From positions 1,736,001-1,800,000 of the forward strand of contig NZ_CP029176.1 of NCBI RefSeq assembly GCF_003352165.1: 64,000 nucleotides of DNA, read 5' to 3'. Shown piece after piece: positions 32,017 through 43,420 of the stretch. Within the stretch, counting starts at the first letter, position 1. Each line of letters starts with the position of its first letter. The notes below the pieces were generated by a model. That model did no database searches. It was not told the origin of the DNA and worked only from the letters and a program-made list of their open reading frames with translations. The stretch comes from Acidibrevibacterium fodinaquatile (GTDB taxonomy: Bacteria; Pseudomonadota; Alphaproteobacteria; Acetobacterales; Acetobacteraceae). The position numbers and the translations under genes are program-made.

Positions 32017-32381
32017 GGCGCGAGCGCTTTTCATCGCCGTGACGCGCGTGCCGGCCGCGGGGGCGGGGTCGGCGTAGAGTTCCCCCCGCACATCTTCGGC
32101 GGTCATCTCCGGTGTGCCGATAGGAAGGCTCTTGCCGCCGTGTTGGCGCCGGCGCCGCGATGCGCGGAGCGATCGCGCGACCGCCATGCTGCGGCGAATG
32201 CGGGCGATCCTGGCGCACAGGATGCCCGCCGATCGCGTCGTTGATGCGAATCAAATTTCGCCGCGATATTGTGTCGTGACCCGCCAATCCTGCGCATCCG
32301 CCGCGCCGATCCGTGTTATGCCTTTTGCAATCTGCGTCCGCTATGCTCTCGCGAATGTGGCCGAGCGAGGAATATCCGATC
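32017..32381. other. 365-base region without a recognised gene
   Basis: Between ridA and the glucoamylase gene. Open frames exist on both strands, but none has a recognised product. A minus-strand reading near 32030-32130 (TPEMTAEDVRGELYADPAP) has protein-like composition and could be a remnant of a deleted gene. The last 50 bases should hold the glucoamylase promoter and its ribosome-binding site GAGGAA (just upstream of 32382). Confidence 0.4.
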
Positions 32382-34781
32382 ATGCCTCTTGATACCCATC
32401 ATCTGCCAATCGCCAACGCCCCACCGGTTTCGGACGCGCCCGGCGCGCCTGGCAATGCACCGACCTGGACCAGCAGCGCGAAGGACGTGGTCGGCGGCTC
32501 GCTCGGTCCGGCGCGGCTCTGGTTCACGCTCGGCTTCGGCATCGTCACCGAGGTCTATTACCCGCGCGTCGATCTGCCGCAGATCCGTGATCTCGGCTTC
32601 ATCGTTGGCGACGACGCCGGGTTCTGGGTCGAGGTCAAGCGGCTCGGAACCTATGACGTGCGGCTGCTCGCGCCCGGGGTGCCGGCGGTGGAAATCCTTC
32701 ACCGCCATCCGCGCTTTCGTCTTCGGCTCCGCATTACCCCCGATCCGCTGCGCGACGTATTGCTGATCGAGGCGACCCTGACCGGTGATCCGGCGCTGCG
32801 GCTCTATGTGTTGCTCGCCCCGCGGCTCGGTGCGACCGGGGAGGGTAATGTCGCTGCGGTGGCGCGCTATCGCGGCCGGCGTGTGCTGTGGGCGGAGCAG
32901 GGGCCGTATGGTCTTGCGCTGGTCGCCGCTGACGCTGCTCAGCGCGACGTCATGGGGGCGGCGAGCGCGGGGTATGTCGGGGTCAGCGACGGTTGGCAGG
33001 ATTTCGCCGTCCATGGCGCGCTGACCTGGGAATATGACCGCGCCGGGCCGGGGAATGTCGCGCTGGTGGCGGCGCTGCCGGCGCACGCGGTGCTGGCGCT
33101 GGGCTTTGCCGCGACCAAGCAGGCGGCGGCGACGCTGGCCGTCTCCAGCCTGCTCGAACCGTTCGCCGCGGTGCTGCTGCGTCAGGTGGCGGATTGGCAG
33201 GATTGGTACGCCGGCGCCAACCGGCGCAACCCGGTGCGCTGGGAAGCGCCGGACGCGCTGGGCGAGCAGTTCATGGTCTCCGCCATGGTGCTCCGCAGCC
33301 ACCTCGATAAGACCTATCCGGGCGCGATGGTCGCCAGCCTCTCCATCCCCTGGGGCGATCGCGGCACCGAGCGCGGCGGCTATCATCTGGTCTGGCCGCG
33401 CGATCTCGTGCAATGCGCGACCGCCCTGCTCGCGCTCGGCGCCGAGGAGGAGGCGCGCAACGCGCTCCGCTACCTGATCGCGACGCAGCGCGAAGACGGG
33501 CATTGGGAGCAAAACCAATGGCTGGGCGGCCGCCCCTATTGGCAGGGCAAACAGCTCGACCAGACCGCTTGCCCGGTCGTGCTGGCGGCGTTGCTTGGGG
33601 AACGGGATGCGTTGGGCGGCACCGAGATCGCCGACATGGTCGCCGCCGCCCTCGGCTATCTGCTCCGCAACGGCCCGGTCTCCGAGCAGGACCGCTGGGA
33701 GGAGAGCGCCGGCATCACCCCTTACACGCTCGCCTGCGTGATCGCCGCCCTGGTGGCTGGGGCGGCGTTCCTGCCGCTGCGGCTGCGTTGGCTCGCGCTG
33801 GTGGTTGCGGATTTCTGGAACGCCGAGATCGAGCGCTGGCTCGTTGTGCGCGGCGGTCCCCTGGCCGCGGAGGCCGGCATTGCCGCCCACTACGTGCATT
33901 TGGCGCCGGCGGCGATCTTGACCGACCCGGCGGCGCTGGCGACGCCGATTCCCCTCCACAACCAGCCGACGCCACGCGCGATCCCCGCCAACGCGCTGGT
34001 CTCACTCGACTTTCTCGCGCTGGTGCGGTTCGGATTGCGCCGCGCCGATGATGCGCTGATGGTCGATAGCCTGAAACTGGCCGACGCGCTGCTCAAGACC
34101 GATACCCCCTCTGGCCCGGTTTGGCACCGCTATGTCGGGGATGGTTACGGCGAGACGGAGGACGGCGCCCCCTATGTCGGCGCCGGGCGCGGGCGCGGCT
34201 GGCCGCTCCTTGCCGGCGAGCGGGGCCAGTACGAACTCGCCGCCGGGCGCGACCCGCTGCCACTTTTGCAGGCGATGGCGAAAATGGCCGGCAAGGGCGG
34301 CATGATTCCCGAGCAGGTATGGGACGCCGAGGCGATTCCGCGCCGCTTCCTCTATCCCGGCCGGCCGACCGGGTCGGCAACACCGCTCGCTTGGGCGCAT
34401 GCGGAATTCGTCAAGCTGGTGATCTCGCGCCAAGCCGGGCGGGCGGTGGACGCGCCGGCTGCGGTCGGGCGGCGCTACCGGGCGCGGCGGCGGGCGGCGG
34501 TGCGCAGTGTCTGGATGCCCTGGGCGCCGGTCGCGCGGATGACCGCGGGCACCCGGCTGGTGGTGGTGCTGACGCGGCCGGCGGCGCTGCGTTGGGAAGC
34601 GGCCGGCACACCGGGGGGCGAGCGCCATACCTTGGCGGTCGGGTTCGGGCTCTACGCCGCGACACTGCGGACCGAGGCGGTCGCGGCCGGGAATACGATC
34701 ACGGTCTCGTGGCGTTGGCGGGACGGGGCGGACGACGCCACGCCCGATGGCGGCGAGACGCGGGTGCTGGCGGCGGCATAG
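32382..34781 (+). CDS. GH15 glucoamylase-like glucan 1,4-alpha-glucosidase
   Basis: A 799-residue member of glycoside hydrolase family 15. The prokaryotic plan is visible: an N-terminal super-beta-sandwich (residues ~25-290, from TWTSSAKDVVGGSLGPARLWFTLGFG), then the (alpha/alpha)6 barrel. The barrel has GGYHLVWPRDLVQCATALLALG near residue 335, a general-acid Glu in DRWEESAGITPYT near 445 and the base Glu in PEQVWDAEAIP near 650. The C-terminal ~110 residues form an extra beta domain. No signal peptide is seen, so it probably acts on cytoplasmic glucans. It converges with glgX (16 bases apart), pointing to glycogen turnover. GAGGAA nine bases upstream supports the start. Confidence 0.9.
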   Translation: MPLDTHHLPIANAPPVSDAPGAPGNAPTWTSSAKDVVGGSLGPARLWFTLGFGIVTEVYYPRVDLPQIRDLGFIVGDDAGFWVEVKRLGTYDVRLLAPGVPAVEILHRHPRFRLRLRITPDPLRDVLLIEATLTGDPALRLYVLLAPRLGATGEGNVAAVARYRGRRVLWAEQGPYGLALVAADAAQRDVMGAASAGYVGVSDGWQDFAVHGALTWEYDRAGPGNVALVAALPAHAVLALGFAATKQAAATLAVSSLLEPFAAVLLRQVADWQDWYAGANRRNPVRWEAPDALGEQFMVSAMVLRSHLDKTYPGAMVASLSIPWGDRGTERGGYHLVWPRDLVQCATALLALGAEEEARNALRYLIATQREDGHWEQNQWLGGRPYWQGKQLDQTACPVVLAALLGERDALGGTEIADMVAAALGYLLRNGPVSEQDRWEESAGITPYTLACVIAALVAGAAFLPLRLRWLALVVADFWNAEIERWLVVRGGPLAAEAGIAAHYVHLAPAAILTDPAALATPIPLHNQPTPRAIPANALVSLDFLALVRFGLRRADDALMVDSLKLADALLKTDTPSGPVWHRYVGDGYGETEDGAPYVGAGRGRGWPLLAGERGQYELAAGRDPLPLLQAMAKMAGKGGMIPEQVWDAEAIPRRFLYPGRPTGSATPLAWAHAEFVKLVISRQAGRAVDAPAAVGRRYRARRRAAVRSVWMPWAPVARMTAGTRLVVVLTRPAALRWEAAGTPGGERHTLAVGFGLYAATLRTEAVAAGNTITVSWRWRDGADDATPDGGETRVLAAA

Positions 34782-34797
34782 CGGGCTTTCGCGTGCC

Positions 34798-36783
34798 TCA
34801 GCCAGCGAGGAGCATGAGCGAGCGCCCCGCCACTTCGAGCCATCCGGCGGCGGTGCCACGCCGGCGCGGCGCCGCGGTATCGACGAGCACCCGCCATCGC
34901 CGCCCGTCCGTGATCTCGGGCAGTTGCACCCAGACCGGCGCACTGCCGGCGTGGGCAACCAGCAGTGCCTTTCCGGGCGCGTCCGCGATCAGCGCGACCA
35001 GGGTGCGCCGGTCGGGCTCCTGCCACAGCGCTGGGGTCATCGGCGCGCCCTCTGGCGTGCGCCAGGCGATCTCCGCATCCGTGACCGCCGCCGCGCCACA
35101 CGCGAAGGCGCAGCGCCGGCGAAGCTGCAGCAGCCGCGCGGTGAAGCGGAGCAGGGCGCGGTCCATGCCCGCCCAGTCAAACCAGGATATCTCATTGTCT
35201 TGCGCATAGGCGTTGTTGTTGCCGCGCTGGCTCCGCCCGCACTCATCCCCCATGCCGATCATCGGCGTCCCGCGTGAGAGCAGCAGCGAGGCGAGCAACG
35301 CACGCTGATCGGCGGCTCGCGCGGTGCGGAGCGCGGGGTCGTTGTGCGGCCCCTCGACCCCGTGATTCCACGACCAGTTGCTCTCCGCCCCGTCGCGCCC
35401 GCCCTCGCCATTGGCGTCGTTATGCTTTTGCGCATACGAGACGAGATCGGCGAGGGTGAACCCATCATGCGCGGTGATGAAATTGACCGAGCGGGTGAGC
35501 GCCCGCCCGCGTGCCGCGAAGATGTCGGCCGAGCCGCAGAAGGCGGTTGCAAGCGCCCCCACCTGGCCCGGATCGCCGCGCCAGAAGCGGCGCAGCGTGT
35601 CGCGGTAGCGATCGTTCCACTCACCCCAATCGGGCGGGAAAGCGCCGAGCTGGTAGCCGCCTGGGCCGGGATCCCAGGGTTCGGCGATCCGCGCCCGGCC
35701 GCGCAGCACGGTATTCGCCTCGATCGCGGCAAGCAGCGGCGCCGCCGGATCGAACCCGTCCTCGCGCCGCCCGAGCACGGTCGCGAGATCGAAGCGGAAG
35801 CCATCAACCCCGGCATGCAGCACCCAACGCCGCAATGCCGCCAACGCCAGCGCCACCACCGCCGGGCGATCGAGCGCCATGGTGTTGCGGCAACCGGTCT
35901 CGTCGCGATAGCGCGACGGATCAGCGGGATCGAGCCGGTAATAGCTGGCATTATCGATCCCGCGCAGCGAGAGAGTGGGGCCGGTTTCATCGTACTCGCC
36001 GGTATGGTTGAGAACGATATCGACGAGCACGGCGATTCCGGCGTCGTGCAGGGCATCGACCGCCGCCCGCACCTCGGCAAAGCCGCCCGGCGCGAGACGC
36101 GGATCGGGCGCGGCGAAGGTCACGGGATTATACCCCCAGGCATCGGTGAGACCGAGAGGCGGCAGATGCGGCGCCTCGATCCGCGGCGTTGGTGGCATCA
36201 GCTCCACCGCGGCAATGCCAAGCCGGCGTAGATAGGCGATGGCGGCAGGATGGGCGAGGCCGGCGAAGGTGCCGCGCAACGGCGGCGGAATTTCGGGATG
36301 GGTGCGGGTGAAGCCACCGACATTGAGTTCGTAGATCGCGCCACCGTCCCAGGCAAAGCGCGACGCCGCCGGCGGCAATGTCGGCGCGGCTTCGACGATC
36401 GCCTTGGGCATCGCCGCAGCGCTGTCGCCGCCGCCGACAAACAGCGAGGGATGCAGCCGGAACGGCCGGTCGAACCGCGTCGCCAGCGGATCGCAGAGCA
36501 GCTTCATGGGATCGAAGCGATGCCCGCGCGCCGGATCAAACGGCCCGGTAACGCGCAGCCCATAACGCACCCCGGGGCCGAGGCCGCCGATAGCGCCATG
36601 GAACACGTCGCCGGTGCGCGCCGGTAAGGCGATCCGTTCGATCTCGCGCGCTCCCGCCGCATCGAACAGACAAATGTCGATCGCCGTCGCATGGGCGGAA
36701 AATACCGCGAAATTGACACCCCCCGGCACCGGCGTTGCACCGAGCGGGTCCGGCCGGCCGGGTGCGAGGGGGTATGCTGTCAT
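34798..36783 (-). CDS. glgX: glycogen debranching enzyme GlgX
   Basis: A GH13 isoamylase-type enzyme that hydrolyses alpha-1,6 branches of glycogen, usually after phosphorylase trimming. The N-terminal carbohydrate-binding domain starts PLGATPVPGGVNFAVFSAHA. Barrel motifs are LVDIVLNHTGE, the nucleophile Asp in VDGFRFDLATVLG, the acid/base Glu in ARIAEPWDPG and FITAHDGFTLADLVSY. The ATG at 36783 (MTAYPLAPG) gives 661 residues, close to the E. coli enzyme at 657. An upstream ATG at 36924 would add 47 basic, unconserved residues. No glgB, glgC, glgA or glgP is in the window. Confidence 0.93.
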   Translation of the reverse strand: MTAYPLAPGRPDPLGATPVPGGVNFAVFSAHATAIDICLFDAAGAREIERIALPARTGDVFHGAIGGLGPGVRYGLRVTGPFDPARGHRFDPMKLLCDPLATRFDRPFRLHPSLFVGGGDSAAAMPKAIVEAAPTLPPAASRFAWDGGAIYELNVGGFTRTHPEIPPPLRGTFAGLAHPAAIAYLRRLGIAAVELMPPTPRIEAPHLPPLGLTDAWGYNPVTFAAPDPRLAPGGFAEVRAAVDALHDAGIAVLVDIVLNHTGEYDETGPTLSLRGIDNASYYRLDPADPSRYRDETGCRNTMALDRPAVVALALAALRRWVLHAGVDGFRFDLATVLGRREDGFDPAAPLLAAIEANTVLRGRARIAEPWDPGPGGYQLGAFPPDWGEWNDRYRDTLRRFWRGDPGQVGALATAFCGSADIFAARGRALTRSVNFITAHDGFTLADLVSYAQKHNDANGEGGRDGAESNWSWNHGVEGPHNDPALRTARAADQRALLASLLLSRGTPMIGMGDECGRSQRGNNNAYAQDNEISWFDWAGMDRALLRFTARLLQLRRRCAFACGAAAVTDAEIAWRTPEGAPMTPALWQEPDRRTLVALIADAPGKALLVAHAGSAPVWVQLPEITDGRRWRVLVDTAAPRRRGTAAGWLEVAGRSLMLLAG

Positions 36784-37126: not shown

Positions 37127-37807
37127 GTGCGCGAGATGAAACCGAGCGCACGCAGGCGGGGGCGAGACGTGACGAGACGTGACGATAGCGACGACAAGAA
37201 CATCGACAAGAACATCAGCGATAGCGAAGCATGCCGGGGAGAAACTTGCTGGGGGCGCAGGCGTGTCCTCGGTGCTGGGGTTGGCTTGGCCCCGGTGGCT
37301 TTGGCGCCTTGGCTCGCGCGGCCGGCTCGCGCCGATGATCCGAGCGAATTGCATCCGCGGCCCGGCGACCGGCTGGTGTTTCTCACCGGCGCGAAAAAGG
37401 GGCAGATCATCAAGCCCGAGGATCTGCCGCTTGGCGGGCCGCAAGTCCAGGCCTATCCGCAAAGCCCGGACGGTGTCCTGCGCGATGGGTCGCGGCTCAA
37501 TCTGTTGATCGTCATTCGTCTCGATCCCAAGGAAATGAGCCCGACGACGCAGGCCAACGCCGCCGGCGACGTTGTTGCCTATTCCGCCGTCTGCACCCAT
37601 CAGGGCTGCCCGGTGAATGCCTGGTCGGACGAGAAAAAGATGATGGTCTGCTCCTGCCACGGATCGACCTACGATCCGCGTGACGGCGCGAAGCTGGTCT
37701 TTGGTCCGGCGCCACGCGCGTTGCCCGCTTTGCCGTTGAAACTCGATGCTGGAATTCCCGTCGTCGCCACCGGATTTTCCGAGCGGCTCGGGGGTGAGAC
37801 CGCCTAA
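37127..37807 (+). CDS. Tat-exported Rieske [2Fe-2S] protein (AioB-like)
   Basis: A 226-residue protein (GTG start; ATG at 37136 possible). An unusually long hydrophilic n-region of ~43 residues leads to a twin-arginine signal (GRRRVLGAG, then a hydrophobic core ending ARPARA). The Rieske domain has CTHQGCPVNA and CSCHGSTYDP, complete ligands (Cys-His plus Cys-His) with the two disulfide cysteines. Spacing and the tail after DPRDG resemble the small subunit of arsenite oxidase more than the bc1 Rieske protein. It is followed after 70 bases by the PQQ dehydrogenase gene. It may carry electrons from that enzyme in the periplasm (inference). Confidence 0.88.
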   Translation: MREMKPSARRRGRDVTRRDDSDDKNIDKNISDSEACRGETCWGRRRVLGAGVGLAPVALAPWLARPARADDPSELHPRPGDRLVFLTGAKKGQIIKPEDLPLGGPQVQAYPQSPDGVLRDGSRLNLLIVIRLDPKEMSPTTQANAAGDVVAYSAVCTHQGCPVNAWSDEKKMMVCSCHGSTYDPRDGAKLVFGPAPRALPALPLKLDAGIPVVATGFSERLGGETA

Positions 37808-37877
37808 GCCTTGGTCCCGCCGCACGCGCGGCGCGGACATCATGCGTGCCGAACAAAACCAAAAGGGAGACGCCAAG

Positions 37878-39599
37878 ATGTCAAAATTACTGTCGAGCAC
37901 CTGCCTTGCCGCGACGCTGGCGATCGGTCTCGCCGGCCTCGCGCACGGCGCCGATTACACGCCGGTCACCGATGCCAGGCTCACCAATCCCGAGCCGCAA
38001 AACTGGCTGATGACGCGCGGCAATTATCAGGGCTGGAGCTATAGCCCGCTCGATCAGGTCAATAGCAGCAATGTTCGCGGCCTGACGCCGGTGTGGACGT
38101 TTTCCACCGGTGTCGATTCCGGCCATGAATCGCCGCCGATCGTCAATAACGGCGTGATGTTCGTCTCGACGCCCTATGCCCAGGTGATCGCGCTTGATGC
38201 CGCAACCGGCGATGAACTCTGGCGCTACAAACGCAAGCTCCCCGAGGGCTTCAGCGCGCTGCACAACACCAATCGCGGCGTCGCGCTGTATGGTGATCGC
38301 GTCTATCTCGCCGGGCTGGATGCGGTTCTGGTCGCGCTCGATGCCCGCACCGGCAAGGTGGCTTGGGAAACCAAGGTCGAGGACTGGAAGACCGGCTATT
38401 ACATGACGATGGCGCCTTTGGTGGTGAAGGGTAAGATCCTGGTCGGCGTCGCCGGCGGCGAATTCGGGGTGCGCGGCTTCGTCGAGGCGTTCGATGCCGA
38501 TAGCGGCAAATCGGTTTGGAAAACCTACTCAATCCCCGCGCCCGGCGAGCCCGGCAGCAACACCTGGGAAAAGCCCGATACTTGGAAGACCGGCGGCGCC
38601 AGCACCTGGATGACCGGCAATTATGATCCGACGACCGATACGGTGTTCTGGGGTACTGGCAATGGCTCGCCCTGGTTTGGCGATCAACGGCCGGGCGATA
38701 ATCTCTATACGTCTTCGACGCTCGCGCTCGATGGCGCGACCGGCAAGCTCAAAGGCTATTTCCAATACCAGCAGAACGAGGACTGGGATTGGGATGCGAT
38801 GAACGCGCCGATGCTGGTCGATTTCCAGAAAGATGGCGCGACCGTCAACGGCCTGCTCTCGCCGCAGCGGAATGGCTATCTCTATTGGCTGCAACGCAAA
38901 TCCGATGGCGGCATCGGCTTCCTCAAGGCCCAGCCTTATGTGATGCAAAACGTCTTCAAAAGCGTCGACGCAACCACGGGCCGCCCGGTGATCGACATGG
39001 ACCACAAACCGGGCACCGGAAAAATGGCGCAATTCTGCCCCGGCCTCTGGGGCGGCAAGGATTGGCCCTATGAATCCTACAGCCCGAAAACCGGCATGGT
39101 CTATATTCCGTCGAACGAAAACCACTGCAACAAGTTCGAAGGCAAAGTCGAGGAGCGCGTGCCCGGCCAGTGGTGGACCGGGGTTGCTGTCCCCGATTTC
39201 CACTTCAGCGTCGATCCGAAAGCGCCGTTCTATGGCGAGATCAAGACCTATGACGTCAATACCGGCGCGCCCGGCTGGCGCCAGCTTTACGCGCATTCGA
39301 TGATGTGGGGCTCGCTGCTTTCGACCGGCGGCAATTTGGTCTTCGGCGGTGGCACCAATGACCGCGAGTTCCGCGCCTATGACGCGACCACCGGCGAGGA
39401 GCTCTGGCATTCGCGCACCAATTCGGCGATCATCGCGCCGCCCGCGAGCTATGAGGTCAACGGCGTGCAGTATGTCGCGGTGCAATCGGGCTATGGCGTC
39501 GACGCCGCCTATCAGGAGACTTTGCTCAGCGAACTGCTCGGCTGGCAGGCAGACGTGCCGCAGGGTGGCGTGGTTTGGGTTTACGCGTTGAGCAAGTAA
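37878..39599 (+). CDS. PQQ-dependent alcohol dehydrogenase with lanthanide-type Asp
   Basis: A 573-residue periplasmic quinoprotein with a signal peptide (residues 1-24, LAHGA) and the eight-bladed propeller of methanol/ethanol dehydrogenases. No C-terminal heme domain (no CxxCH). Aligned by eye to MxaF, the metal/PQQ ligands are E195 (GGEFGVRG), N262 (GTGNGSPW), catalytic D304 and R331 (SPQRNGYLYW). D306, two residues after the catalytic Asp (WDWDAMN), is the extra ligand that marks XoxF/PedH-type lanthanide enzymes; calcium enzymes have Ala or Ser there. The adjacent Cys pair that normally precedes NRG is absent (A127-L128). GGGAG precedes the ATG. The alcohol substrate is unknown. Confidence 0.9.
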   Translation: MSKLLSSTCLAATLAIGLAGLAHGADYTPVTDARLTNPEPQNWLMTRGNYQGWSYSPLDQVNSSNVRGLTPVWTFSTGVDSGHESPPIVNNGVMFVSTPYAQVIALDAATGDELWRYKRKLPEGFSALHNTNRGVALYGDRVYLAGLDAVLVALDARTGKVAWETKVEDWKTGYYMTMAPLVVKGKILVGVAGGEFGVRGFVEAFDADSGKSVWKTYSIPAPGEPGSNTWEKPDTWKTGGASTWMTGNYDPTTDTVFWGTGNGSPWFGDQRPGDNLYTSSTLALDGATGKLKGYFQYQQNEDWDWDAMNAPMLVDFQKDGATVNGLLSPQRNGYLYWLQRKSDGGIGFLKAQPYVMQNVFKSVDATTGRPVIDMDHKPGTGKMAQFCPGLWGGKDWPYESYSPKTGMVYIPSNENHCNKFEGKVEERVPGQWWTGVAVPDFHFSVDPKAPFYGEIKTYDVNTGAPGWRQLYAHSMMWGSLLSTGGNLVFGGGTNDREFRAYDATTGEELWHSRTNSAIIAPPASYEVNGVQYVAVQSGYGVDAAYQETLLSELLGWQADVPQGGVVWVYALSK

Positions 39600-39634
39600 A
39601 CGCGCCAATCTTTCCAGGCGCCCGGCGCACACCA

Positions 39635-39680
39635 ACCAGGCAAAGACCAACCGCCCATCGCGGCGGTTGGTTTTCCTGGT
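39635..39680 (+). terminator. rho-independent terminator after the PQQ dehydrogenase
   Basis: ACCAACCGCC (39646-39655) pairs perfectly with GGCGGTTGGT (39662-39671) around a 6-base loop and runs into TTTT. An outer stem ACCAGG/CCTGGT (39635-39640 with 39675-39680) extends it. It lies between the dehydrogenase and the next gene on the same strand, so part of the transcript may stop here, setting a higher level for the dehydrogenase than for the downstream gene. Confidence 0.82.
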
Positions 39681-39710
39681 CTTACCCGCCGCTTTTAAGG
39701 ATGATCCATA

Positions 39711-40196
39711 ATGGTATTTGATGGTCCCGCGACGGCATGCCGCACCGCTCTCACTCGGCGCCTCGCGCTCGCCGCGCTGGCATTGACGTTTGGTGCGGCG
39801 CCAGGGGTTCCGGGATGCGCGCGCGCGGAAGAGCCGTCGGCTATGCTTGCGGAAAGCCCGGCGTATCGCGTTTCGGTCGAGAATGTCACTGCCAAGGTTG
39901 GCACGCATGCGGTGATGCACGCGATTTTACGGCCGAAAGCGGGCTTTCGGATCTTGAAGGGGTACGAGAACCGTATCGCCCGGTTTTCCTCGGCCGATGA
40001 CGGGGTCATCTTCGATGAAAAGATGGTGCGTGGCCACCTCGAGAATGACAGTCTGGTGTTCGATATCGGCGTGACGCCGACCAAGCCCGGCAGCCATCCG
40101 ATCAACGGCGTCTTCCGGGTGGGCTACATCCAGGGCGACAGCGATCTCTCGATGGTTTCGCTGCCGCTGATCGCAAATGTCACTGGCACTGAGTAG
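39711..40196 (+). CDS. small exported protein linked to the PQQ dehydrogenase
   Basis: A 161-residue protein with a signal peptide that contains two Arg before the hydrophobic core (TRRLALAALAL) and a likely cleavage after ARA near residue 39. The mature ~120 residues are strand-rich (YRVSVENVTAKVGTHAVMHA, VFDIGVTPTKPGSHPINGVF) and resemble, loosely, the N-terminal periplasmic domain of DsbD-type proteins, but have no cysteine pair. I do not know its function; a chaperone or electron-transfer partner role for the dehydrogenase is plausible. AAGGATGAT precedes the ATG. Its last 15 bases, including the stop, are duplicated in tandem. Confidence 0.78.
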   Translation: MVFDGPATACRTALTRRLALAALALTFGAAPGVPGCARAEEPSAMLAESPAYRVSVENVTAKVGTHAVMHAILRPKAGFRILKGYENRIARFSSADDGVIFDEKMVRGHLENDSLVFDIGVTPTKPGSHPINGVFRVGYIQGDSDLSMVSLPLIANVTGTE

Positions 40197-40662: not shown

Positions 40663-41115
40663 ATGATCACGCTGAGCGTGAACGGACAGGAGCACAAATA
40701 TGACGGCGATCCGTCTTTGCCCCTGCTCTGGTTCCTGAGAGACGAAGCCGGGCTACCCGGCACGAAATTTGGCTGCGGCGAGGCCCTTTGCGGCGCGTGC
40801 ACCGTGCATGTCAACGGCGAGGCGGTGCGTTCCTGCGCCGTGCAAATGTCGGACGCCGCCGGCAAATCGGTGGTCACCATCGAGGGACTCGACCCGCACG
40901 GCAACCACCCGGTGCAGCGCGCCTGGCGCGCCGTCAACGTGCCGCAATGCGGCTTCTGCCAAGCCGGGCAGATCATGCAGGCCGCAGCCCTGCTCAAGCA
41001 AACCCCGAACCCGACCGATGAGCAGATCCACACCGCGATGGCCGGCAATATCTGCCGCTGCGGCTGTTATCAGCGCATCGAAGCCGCGGTTCGCATCGCC
41101 GCGACGGGAGTGTGA
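40663..41115 (+). CDS. [2Fe-2S] subunit of a molybdenum hydroxylase (IorA-like)
   Basis: A 150-residue small subunit of the xanthine oxidase family, closest in design to isoquinoline 1-oxidoreductase alpha. The plant-type ferredoxin cluster is held by [17 protein letters not shown] (residues ~37-53) and its partner Cys near residue 58. The second cluster has CGFCQAG near 96 and [10 protein letters not shown] near 130. It passes electrons from the molybdenum centre of the next gene's product. There is no signal peptide; if it is exported, it must travel with the Tat-carrying large subunit. Only one base separates it from the large-subunit ATG. Confidence 0.93.
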
Positions 41116-41116
41116 T

Positions 41117-43420
41117 ATGACCCATATCGGCAAAAATGAAACCGCACTCGCGGTCGAGAATGTTAGCCGCCGCGCCTGGCTCAAGGGCGTCGTCGCTTCC
41201 GGCAGCCTGATCGTCGCCGCGAGCGCGCTGCCGCGCGGCGCCATGGCCGCCTGGAAGACCGGGGCGGATGCGATGCCGCATGGCACCGTCTCTGACCCGC
41301 ATGTCTTCGTCGCGATCGACAAGGACGGCATCGTTACCATCGTCGCGCATCGCTCGGAAATGGGCACGGGGTCGAAAACCAGCCTGCCCATGGTCGTCGC
41401 CGACGAGATGAGCGCCGATTGGAGCCGCTGCCGCGTCGTGCAGGCGCCGGGCGACGAGGTCAAATACGGCAATCAGGACACGGACGGCTCGCGCAGTCTG
41501 CGCCACTTCGTCCAACCGATGCGCCAATGCGGCGCGGCTGCGCGGCTGATGCTGGAAATGGCGGCGGCGAAACGGCTCGGCGTCGATGTCAGCGAGGTCG
41601 AGGCGATCAACCACGAGGTCGTGCATCGCCATTCCGGGCGTAGCTTCGGCTTCGGCGAATTGGCGGCAGAGGCTGCGGCGTTGCCGACGCCGGCGCCCGA
41701 TCAGATCCGCCTCAAGGATCCGAATTCGTTCCGCTATATCGGCACCGGTTCGGTTCCGATCGTCGATCTCTTCGGCATCACCACCGGCACCGCGACCTAT
41801 GGCGCCGATGTTCGTCTCCCGGGGATGAAATACGCCGTGATCCTTCGCCCGCCGGTGCTCGGCAGCAAGGTGAAATCCTTCGATGCGTCGGCGGCGCTGA
41901 AACTTCCCGGTGTCGAGAAGGTGATGGAGGTCAAGGGCTGGGATTGGCCAGCGAAATTCCAGCCGCTCGGCGGCGTCGCGGTGATCGCGCGCAATACCGG
42001 CATGGCGATCAAGGGGCGCGACGCGCTCAAGGTGGTTTGGACGGAAAGTCCGCACGCGGTCTATGACTCTGACAAATTCCGCGAGGAGATGCTGGCGACC
42101 TCGCGCAAGCCGGGCAAGACGGTGCGCAACGAGGGCGATATCGATGCCGCGATGAAATCGGCGGCCAAGGTGATTTCGGCGGAATATTACGTGCCGCAAT
42201 TCGCCCATGCGCCGATGGAGCCACCGGTCGCAACCGCCTGGGTGCGGGACGGCATGGCGGAAGTCTGGGCGCCGGTGCAAAGCCCGGGCGGCACGCATGA
42301 CGATCTCTGCAAAACCCTTGGCCTTCCCTATGACAAAGTGAAAGTGAACGTGACGCTGCTCGGCGGCGCGTTCGGGCGCAAATCGAAATGTGATTTCGCG
42401 CTCGAGGCGGCATTGCTGTCGCAGGCGCTGAATGCTCCGGTGCGGGTGCAGTGGACACGCGAAGACGATATCCAGCATGATTTCTATCACGCCCCGGCGG
42501 TCGAGCGGATCGAGGCGGCGCTGGATGGGAACAACAAGGTGGTCGGCTGGCGCCATCGCAACGTCGCGCCGAGCCTGTTTTCCACCTTCATGCCCGATCC
42601 GAAATACCAGCAGCCGCTGGAATACAGCATGGGCCAGGTCGATCTGCCGTTCGAGATCGCCAATATCCGCTGCGAGGTCGGCGAGGCGGCGGCGCATAGC
42701 CGCATCGGCTGGTTCCGCTCGGTGCGGAACGTGCCCAATACCTTCGCGACCCAGTGCTTCGTTGCCGAACTCGCCCATGAACTCGGCCGCGACCCGAAGG
42801 AGATGCTGCTCGAGCTGATCGGCGCGCCGCGCATCGTCGATCCGCGCAAGACCACCGTCGATCTCTGGAACTACGGCGATCCGTTCGAGACCTACCCGAT
42901 CGATACCGGGCGGCTGCGTGGTGTCGTCGAACTGGTTGCTGAGAAAGCCGGCTGGGGCCGCAATTTGCCCGCCGGCCACGGCATGGGGATCGCGGTGCAG
43001 CGCTGCTTCCTGAGCTATGTCGCGACCGTCGTCGAGGTCGCGGTGGACGAAAAGGGCAATATCAGCGTGCCCCGCGTCGATACCGCGATCGATTGCGGCT
43101 TCTTCGTCAATCCCGAGCGCATCGTCTCGCAGATCGAAGGGGCGGCGATCATGGGGCTCACCGTCGCCAAGCACTCGGCCGTCACGTTCAAGAACGGCGT
43201 GCCGCAGCAAGGCAATTTCAACGACTACCCGGTGGTGCGGATCGACGAGGCGCCGCGCGCGACCCATGTCTATATCGTGCCGAATGGCTGGGACGTGCCT
43301 TCGGCTGGCGTTGGCGAGCCGGCGACGGCGCCGTTTGCGCCGGCGTTCTGCAACGCGATCTTCGCCGCGACGCAAAAGCGCATCCGGAGCCTTCCCGTCG
43401 GCGATCAGATCTCGCTCTGA
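41117..43420 (+). CDS. molybdopterin subunit of an IorB-like aldehyde/N-heterocycle oxidoreductase
   Basis: A 767-residue large subunit of the xanthine dehydrogenase family. A twin-arginine signal is present (SRRAWLKGVVASG, then a hydrophobic core ending GAMAA), which points to the periplasm. Cofactor motifs are QSPGGTHDD, LLGGAFGRKSKCDFALEAA and the C-terminal GVGEPATAPFAPAF, which contains the catalytic Glu. The family includes isoquinoline 1-oxidoreductase and the acetic-acid-bacterial aldehyde dehydrogenases. Beside a PQQ alcohol dehydrogenase, an aldehyde substrate is the likelier choice (inference). The cytochrome c subunit common in such enzymes is not encoded next to it. Confidence 0.9.
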   Translation: MTHIGKNETALAVENVSRRAWLKGVVASGSLIVAASALPRGAMAAWKTGADAMPHGTVSDPHVFVAIDKDGIVTIVAHRSEMGTGSKTSLPMVVADEMSADWSRCRVVQAPGDEVKYGNQDTDGSRSLRHFVQPMRQCGAAARLMLEMAAAKRLGVDVSEVEAINHEVVHRHSGRSFGFGELAAEAAALPTPAPDQIRLKDPNSFRYIGTGSVPIVDLFGITTGTATYGADVRLPGMKYAVILRPPVLGSKVKSFDASAALKLPGVEKVMEVKGWDWPAKFQPLGGVAVIARNTGMAIKGRDALKVVWTESPHAVYDSDKFREEMLATSRKPGKTVRNEGDIDAAMKSAAKVISAEYYVPQFAHAPMEPPVATAWVRDGMAEVWAPVQSPGGTHDDLCKTLGLPYDKVKVNVTLLGGAFGRKSKCDFALEAALLSQALNAPVRVQWTREDDIQHDFYHAPAVERIEAALDGNNKVVGWRHRNVAPSLFSTFMPDPKYQQPLEYSMGQVDLPFEIANIRCEVGEAAAHSRIGWFRSVRNVPNTFATQCFVAELAHELGRDPKEMLLELIGAPRIVDPRKTTVDLWNYGDPFETYPIDTGRLRGVVELVAEKAGWGRNLPAGHGMGIAVQRCFLSYVATVVEVAVDEKGNISVPRVDTAIDCGFFVNPERIVSQIEGAAIMGLTVAKHSAVTFKNGVPQQGNFNDYPVVRIDEAPRATHVYIVPNGWDVPSAGVGEPATAPFAPAFCNAIFAATQKRIRSLPVGDQISL

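What the first reader, a model, noticed from the sequence alone, without database searches (positions are those of the whole stretch)
37127..40196. PQQ dehydrogenase module with a Rieske protein in place of a cytochrome c
Methanol/ethanol quinoprotein clusters normally encode a dedicated cytochrome c (MxaG/XoxG or a fused heme domain). Here the neighbours are a Tat-exported, AioB-like Rieske protein and a small exported protein of unknown function, and no CxxCH protein is seen nearby. Seen: gene order, intact Rieske ligands, missing heme domain. Inference: the Rieske protein takes electrons from the PQQ enzyme, as AioB does for arsenite oxidase. I know of no described PQQ-Rieske pair, but cannot search.
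Basis: partly seen in the sequence, partly recalled or inferred. Interest (0 to 1): 0.7.

Follow-up and report, generated by a model that had tools for sequence, protein, structure and literature searches.

The report
Alcohol dehydrogenase paired with Rieske protein
A branch of bacterial alcohol-oxidising enzymes seems to have swapped its usual heme-based electron carrier for an iron-sulfur (Rieske) protein encoded next door, and the enzyme has lost the cysteine pair that its relatives use to pass electrons to the heme carrier.

Summary
No cytochrome c gene lies near, whereas the five other high-scoring PQQ alcohol DHs of this genome each have one next door. Searching DH-first, 18 of 19 DHs of this group in 150 family genomes (the nineteenth ends at a contig edge) and 11 of 11 others in 398 phylum genomes sit beside this Rieske. 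The pair also occurs in beta- and gammaproteobacteria, one Rokubacteria MAG and one Deinococcus plasmid. Adjacent cysteines, reported essential for electron transfer to cytochrome c550, are missing from 50 of 51 DHs of the group but present in 26 of 30 others. The Rieske stays whether the aldehyde enzyme beside it is Mo- or NAD-dependent, so its partner is most likely the DH. Best explanation: it is the DH's dedicated one-electron acceptor. Electron transfer is inferred, not measured. 'AioB-like' is wrong; the full-length match is the Thermus Rieske protein. Eight searches of an open-access library found no description of the pairing. New variant of a known kind.

The parts
37127..37807 (+). 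Exported Rieske [2Fe-2S] protein, Thermus type
   Evidence: PF00355 38.9 bits over cut-off 20.3; best PDB match Thermus Rieske protein; beside the DH in relatives (with 7, 38)
37592..37660 (+). Cluster-binding segment CTHQGC...CSCH (residues 156-178)
   Evidence: Columns invariant in the 17-sequence alignment
37878..39599 (+). PQQ alcohol dehydrogenase, 573 aa with signal peptide
   Evidence: TIGR03075 558 bits over cut-off 480
38256..38270 (+). Site where relatives carry adjacent cysteines; here A-L-H-N-T (residues 127-131)
   Evidence: Alignment of 81 DHs
38787..38795 (+). Catalytic Asp304 and Asp306, the latter in the lanthanide-type position
   Evidence: Catalytic Asp in 51 of 51, Asp at +2 in 42 of 51; role of this Asp in PedH: passage of PMC5487730
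39646..39671 (+). Possible intrinsic terminator hairpin between DH and small protein, followed by only four T
   Evidence: Fold of the stretch -18.4 kcal/mol; not listed on the + strand by the scan
39711..40196 (+). Small exported protein with Ig-like fold, not a core part
   Evidence: No Pfam or NCBIfam match; model with core pLDDT about 90 or more
40663..41115 (+). IorA: 2x[2Fe-2S] subunit of Mo aldehyde oxidoreductase
   Evidence: PF01799, PF00111
41117..43420 (+). IorB: molybdopterin subunit, twin-arginine signal (by eye)
   Evidence: PF02738, PF20256; the genome's only other match is weak, 42 bits

Best explanation
This is a periplasmic alcohol-oxidation module in which a soluble Thermus-type Rieske protein replaces cytochrome c as the dedicated acceptor of a PQQ alcohol dehydrogenase. 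The DH oxidises an alcohol to the aldehyde at PQQ and an active-site metal, predicted to be a lanthanide here. PQQH2 is re-oxidised in two one-electron steps by the [2Fe-2S] protein, which probably then reduces a soluble cytochrome c that feeds an oxidase. The aldehyde goes on to the acid through IorAB here, or through an NAD aldehyde dehydrogenase in other lineages. Shown: gene order, intact ligands and active site, reciprocal co-occurrence, one DH group, missing Cys-Cys, no cytochrome c gene nearby. Inferred: electron transfer from DH to Rieske, the next acceptor, the substrate, the metal, export (signals read by eye).
For: DH-first searches: 18 of 19 DHs of the group in 150 family genomes and 11 of 11 others in 398 phylum genomes have the Rieske adjacent. 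Own genome: the five other DHs at 378 bits or more have a cytochrome c gene next door, this one a Rieske. Adjacent cysteines absent in 50 of 51 DHs of the group, present in 26 of 30 others; [quoted passage not shown] A heme-motif ORF lies beside 27 of 30 others but beside none of the 51, two chance motifs in IorA set aside. 50 DHs form one clade, SH-aLRT 100. Partner distances correlate, r 0.65 over 33 pairs, 0 of 5000 permutations as high. The Rieske stays whether the neighbour is IorAB (16 of 37 loci) or an NAD aldehyde dehydrogenase (13 of 37; one locus has both). The genome has two pqqC genes, cytochromes c and two COX1 matches.
Against: No biochemical or expression data. Four of 30 other DHs also lack Cys-Cys and three of these have a heme-motif neighbour, so loss of the ring is not exclusive to Rieske pairing; the Deinococcus DH has a Rieske neighbour and keeps Cys-Cys. 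5 of 24 family Rieske places lack the DH beside them. Soluble cytochromes c encoded elsewhere could serve. Eight of the 11 phylum cases are one genus. The distance correlation partly reflects shared descent.
Confidence: 0.8

Rival explanations
1. The DH passes electrons to a cytochrome c encoded elsewhere, and the Rieske protein is an accessory (maturation, redox sensing or protection).
For: The genome encodes many cytochromes c and all known acceptors of the closest DHs that I know of are cytochromes (recalled).
Against: No heme-motif neighbour in 51 DHs of the group and missing Cys-Cys in 50 of 51, while five paralogues in the same genome keep a cytochrome c gene next door.
Confidence: 0.1
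2. The Rieske protein serves the IorAB aldehyde enzyme, and the DH is only a neighbour.
For: IorAB lies close by here and IorAB or one of its subunits in 16 of 37 long-flank loci, and IorAB here has no cytochrome subunit.
Against: In 21 of 37 long-flank loci the pair occurs without IorAB nearby (12 with an NAD aldehyde dehydrogenase, 9 with neither). The DH, not IorAB, is always beside the Rieske.
Confidence: 0.05
3. The DH is not a working PQQ enzyme but one of the 'empty' quinoprotein-like proteins.
For: It also matches TIGR04528 (acido-empty-quinoprotein group A) at 368.7 bits and lacks Cys-Cys.
Against: That score is below the model's cut-off of 650, while TIGR03075 is above its own. The catalytic Asp is kept in 51 of 51, and the GGE, GN and Arg motifs are kept in the rows of the group by eye. 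Two pqqC genes are present.
Confidence: 0.03

Closest known systems
ExaA-ExaB-ExaC / PedE-PedF-PedI system of Pseudomonas (quinoprotein alcohol DH, cytochrome c550, NAD aldehyde dehydrogenase)
   Same: Same DH family (best PDB match is a Pseudomonas quinoprotein ethanol DH, 6zcv); an aldehyde dehydrogenase often lies near
   Different: Rieske protein in place of cytochrome c550; adjacent cysteines missing
Periplasmic alcohol/aldehyde oxidation of acetic acid bacteria (membrane ADH plus Mo aldehyde dehydrogenase; recalled)
   Same: PQQ alcohol enzyme followed by a Mo/Fe-S aldehyde enzyme
   Different: No cytochrome c subunits in the cluster; Rieske protein instead
Thermus Rieske protein (1nyk, 3fou)
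   Same: Full-length sequence match, same ligands
   Different: Paired with a PQQ DH instead of a bc-type complex (role of the Thermus protein from its PDB name and recall)
AioB of arsenite oxidase
   Same: Works-like analogy: a periplasmic Rieske taking electrons from a dehydrogenase
   Different: Only the cluster-binding part matches, below the family cut-off; partner is a quinoprotein

Membership tests
PQQ-dependent methanol/ethanol dehydrogenase family (TIGR03075) | Score over the curated cut-off | tested here: met
   558 vs 480 bits
PQQ-dependent methanol/ethanol dehydrogenase family (TIGR03075) | Catalytic Asp and metal/PQQ motifs | tested here: met
   Asp in 51 of 51; other motifs by eye
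PQQ-dependent methanol/ethanol dehydrogenase family (TIGR03075) | Adjacent Cys-Cys ring found in most cytochrome-linked members | tested here: not met
   A-L-H-N-T in its place; absent in 50 of 51 of the group, present in 26 of 30 others. Typical rather than defining, so membership stands
Cytochrome-c-linked quinoprotein system (ExaAB/MxaFG/XoxFG type) | Cytochrome c gene beside the DH or fused heme domain | tested here: not met
Lanthanide-type alcohol DH (PedH/ExaF-like) | Asp two residues after the catalytic Asp | tested here: met
   Asp306 here; 42 of 51 of the group
Lanthanide-type alcohol DH (PedH/ExaF-like) | Lanthanide-dependent activity | not testable with these tools
   Needs purified enzyme
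Thermus-type Rieske protein | Full-length sequence match and cluster ligands | tested here: met
   E 1.6e-52 over 2-150 of 151 profile positions; ligands in 50 of 50 partners
AioB (TIGR02694) | Score over the curated cut-off | tested here: not met
   56.2 vs 95.65 bits
Proteobacterial bc1 Rieske subunit (TIGR01416) | Score over the curated cut-off and bc1 operon | tested here: not met
   36.3 vs 97.4 bits; the genome's bc1-type operon with its own Rieske is elsewhere (L052)

The most novel reading that the evidence does not exclude
A whole group of PQQ alcohol dehydrogenases, found in Pseudomonadota and, by one MAG contig and one plasmid, in two further phyla, has given up c-type cytochromes as direct acceptors for a dedicated periplasmic Rieske protein. 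In lineages like this one, both steps from alcohol to acid (PQQ enzyme and Mo/Fe-S aldehyde enzyme) empty into the same Rieske carrier: a periplasmic oxidation chain without heme until the respiratory chain proper.
Probability: 0.35. Interest if true: 0.85.

Novelty: new variant of a known kind. Interest (0 to 1): 0.75.

Why it matters
Quinoprotein alcohol dehydrogenases of this family are treated as cytochrome-c-linked, and the Cys-Cys ring as part of that route (passages of PMC12997753). A group that lacks both and is found beside a Rieske gene is a natural experiment on how PQQH2 is re-oxidised. It would give annotators a marker for an alcohol-oxidation system that a search for cytochrome partners would miss, and a possible heme-free electron outlet for PQQ enzymes on electrodes.

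Tried and rejected
Rejected: the AioB assignment. The small exported protein as a core part: found in 7 of 37 long-flank loci; other lineages have unrelated small proteins in that place. A named fold for it: the model gave only low-TM (Foldseek) or generic Ig-like matches. A search of viral contigs confirmed no relative of the Rieske. The sigma-70 scan found 2 promoter-like sites where shuffles give 1.9.

Papers: searches listed no paper on a PQQ-Rieske pair. They cover an open-access library; the lists of 72 (15 of 24) and 89 (10 of 36) were seen in part. Of the 23 papers with both 'Rieske' and 'PQQ' all titles and abstract starts were seen, and passages of six were read. Passages of four more papers were read on other points. 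Two searches concerned the Cys-Cys ring. Mennenga 2009 was seen as a title in reference lists and as cited in PMC12997753; Keltjens 2014 as a title only. No paper was read whole.

Gene calls in loci come from a simple script of mine, and the neighbour-with-heme rule is crude. Most of the 51 DHs were fetched through Rieske hits; the unbiased counts are those.
Full report
What is there. Five genes follow one another on the + strand: a Rieske protein (37127-37807), a PQQ alcohol dehydrogenase (37878-39599), a small exported protein (39711-40196), and the two subunits of a molybdenum aldehyde oxidoreductase, IorA (40663-41115) and IorB (41117-43420). The DH passes the curated cut-off of the methanol/ethanol quinoprotein family (558 vs 480 bits). 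Rieske and IorB carry twin-arginine-type signals and the DH a signal peptide (by eye). No cytochrome c gene is near: no called gene in the 64 kb contains CxxCH, five such strings occur in six frames and none in a called gene, and the nearest matches to two cytochrome c models lie about 212 kb downstream and 732 kb upstream. A 466-base gap separates the small protein from IorA, and a possible terminator hairpin follows the DH, so more than one transcript is possible.

Within-genome control. The assembly (4.04 Mb, 4 contigs, rated 100% complete) has six DHs of this family at 378 bits or more. Five have a heme-motif gene beside them, at places that match a cytochrome c model; two of these five (L057, L058) lack Cys-Cys all the same. 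The sixth is the one here, with a Rieske gene instead. A seventh, diverged match (122 bits) has no heme neighbour in its locus. The genome also has an operon that reads as bc1, with its own Rieske subunit, two pqqC genes and two COX1 matches.

Recurrence. Starting from the DH in 150 genomes of the family, 19 DHs in 18 genomes pass E 1e-140 (657 bits or more). Eighteen lie beside a Rieske of this type (coordinates); the nineteenth (G091:C13) starts 316 bases from its contig end and cannot be judged. In 398 genomes of the phylum 12 such DHs occur, ours included, and all 11 others have the Rieske next to them (coordinates). Eight of these 11 belong to one genus. Starting from the Rieske in the family: 24 places in 21 of 150 genomes, 19 with the DH adjacent; the five others are one contig end (L012), two weak hits (L023, L024), one close relative of a paired Rieske (L025), and one in a contig with genes that look by eye like PQQ synthesis (L019/L042). 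Starting from the Rieske in the phylum: 17 genomes, of which 12 strong hits (149 bits or more, ours included) all have the DH adjacent, and 5 weak hits (at most 59 bits) do not.

Breadth. Sixteen have the DH beside them: Bradyrhizobium (3), Denitromonas, Pseudoalteromonas, Neptuniibacter, a Rokubacteria MAG, several other proteobacterial MAGs, three Acetobacteraceae MAGs and one MAG titled Terriglobia; at least three of these are the same contigs as in the family sample. The other 64, mostly Actinomycetota by title, have no DH match at E 1e-6 in the stretch held. Of 16 plasmid records I fetched 10. Eight have the DH adjacent: Paracoccus (3), Roseomonas, Methylobacterium aquaticum (no annotation there; by sequence), Alteromonas, Azoarcus and Deinococcus. 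One Thermus and one Meiothermus do not. Six (one Paracoccus, five Thermus) were not fetched.

What changed in the enzyme. I aligned 81 DHs: 51 of this group (45% identity or more to the window DH; Rieske seen beside 50, the other being the contig-end case) and 30 others; four truncated duplicates were dropped from 85. The catalytic Asp is kept in all 81. Adjacent cysteines are present in 26 of 30 others and absent from 50 of the 51, where an H-x-T motif stands instead; the exception is the Deinococcus DH. In ExaA of P. [quoted passage not shown] By a crude rule a heme-motif ORF lies beside 27 of 30 others and beside none of the 51, after two IorA genes with a chance motif were set aside. Against the reading: four of the 30 others also lack the cysteines and three of these have a heme-motif neighbour. 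In the tree 50 DHs of the group form one clade (SH-aLRT 100); the place of the Deinococcus DH beside it is weakly supported (67).

What goes with the pair. In 37 loci with long flanks, IorAB or one of its subunits lies within 6 kb in 16, an NAD aldehyde dehydrogenase in 13 (one locus has both), and neither in 9. In two of the 16 (L038, L086) the assignment rests on an IorA match alone. The likely pathway is alcohol to aldehyde to acid. The aldehyde enzyme changes while Rieske and DH stay, which points to the DH as the Rieske's partner. The DH comes first in Paracoccus, Alteromonas and Pseudoalteromonas. Distances of DH and partner correlate (r 0.65 over 33 pairs kept of 50; none of 5000 permutations as high, best 0.27), and the same subgroups recur in both trees, among them the Rokubacteria MAG with the Acetobacteraceae group. 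This fits joint inheritance or transfer, but part of it is plain shared descent; in the Rieske tree the paired proteins are not one clean clade (4 changes).

The Rieske protein. The profile of 17 partners matches the Thermus Rieske protein end to end (1nyk, E 1.6e-52) and AioB only over the cluster domain. All 50 partners keep the ligand pattern with the extra cysteines. The serine after the second cluster motif is invariant in A1; in bc1 Rieske proteins it raises the potential (recalled). The potential of the Thermus protein, about +150 mV (recalled), would suit transfer from PQQH2 to cytochrome c.

The small protein. No family match, no PDB sequence match, a confident Ig-like core from about residue 50 in a model from three sequences, and generic structural matches, the best to a quenching protein (7djl, Z 10.8, rmsd 3.4, 102 residues, 10% identity).

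Mechanism and standing. The best explanation is that the Rieske protein is the dedicated electron acceptor of this DH group and hands electrons to a soluble cytochrome c and on to an oxidase. Electron transfer, the next acceptor, substrate and lanthanide use are inferred. The window's Asp306 is in the position that is Asp in lanthanide-dependent PedH and Ser in PedE (passage of PMC5487730); 42 of 51 of the group have Asp and 9 have Ala. I found no description of such a pair in the open-access library; subscription papers were not searched. I file it as a new variant of the known quinoprotein alcohol-oxidation systems.

Noticed in passing
L042 9316-9978 (G094:C714): An unpaired Rieske of the same family lies in a contig with genes that look by eye like PQQ synthesis genes and a different PQQ-DH-like gene.
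   Followed up: partly
L178 4878-7172 (Deinococcus aetherius plasmid pDAETH-2): Rieske plus PQQ DH in another phylum, with a DH that keeps the adjacent cysteines: an early branch or a second, independent pairing.
   Followed up: partly
L179 2194-10821; L085 2135-10826: In Azoarcus and a Rhodocyclaceae MAG the pair sits with a thiamine-pyrophosphate enzyme, an acyl-CoA-synthetase-like gene and an NAD aldehyde dehydrogenase, possibly one catabolic pathway.
   Followed up: no
L058 1402-3282 (G000:C1:3738203-3739741): A quinoprotein-like paralogue in the same genome has lost the usual metal/PQQ motifs but still has a heme-motif gene beside it.
   Followed up: no
   Followed up: no
window 32355-36783: A glucoamylase-like gene (+) and a glycogen-debranching-like gene (-), named by eye, lie upstream; no evident link to the module.
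   Followed up: no
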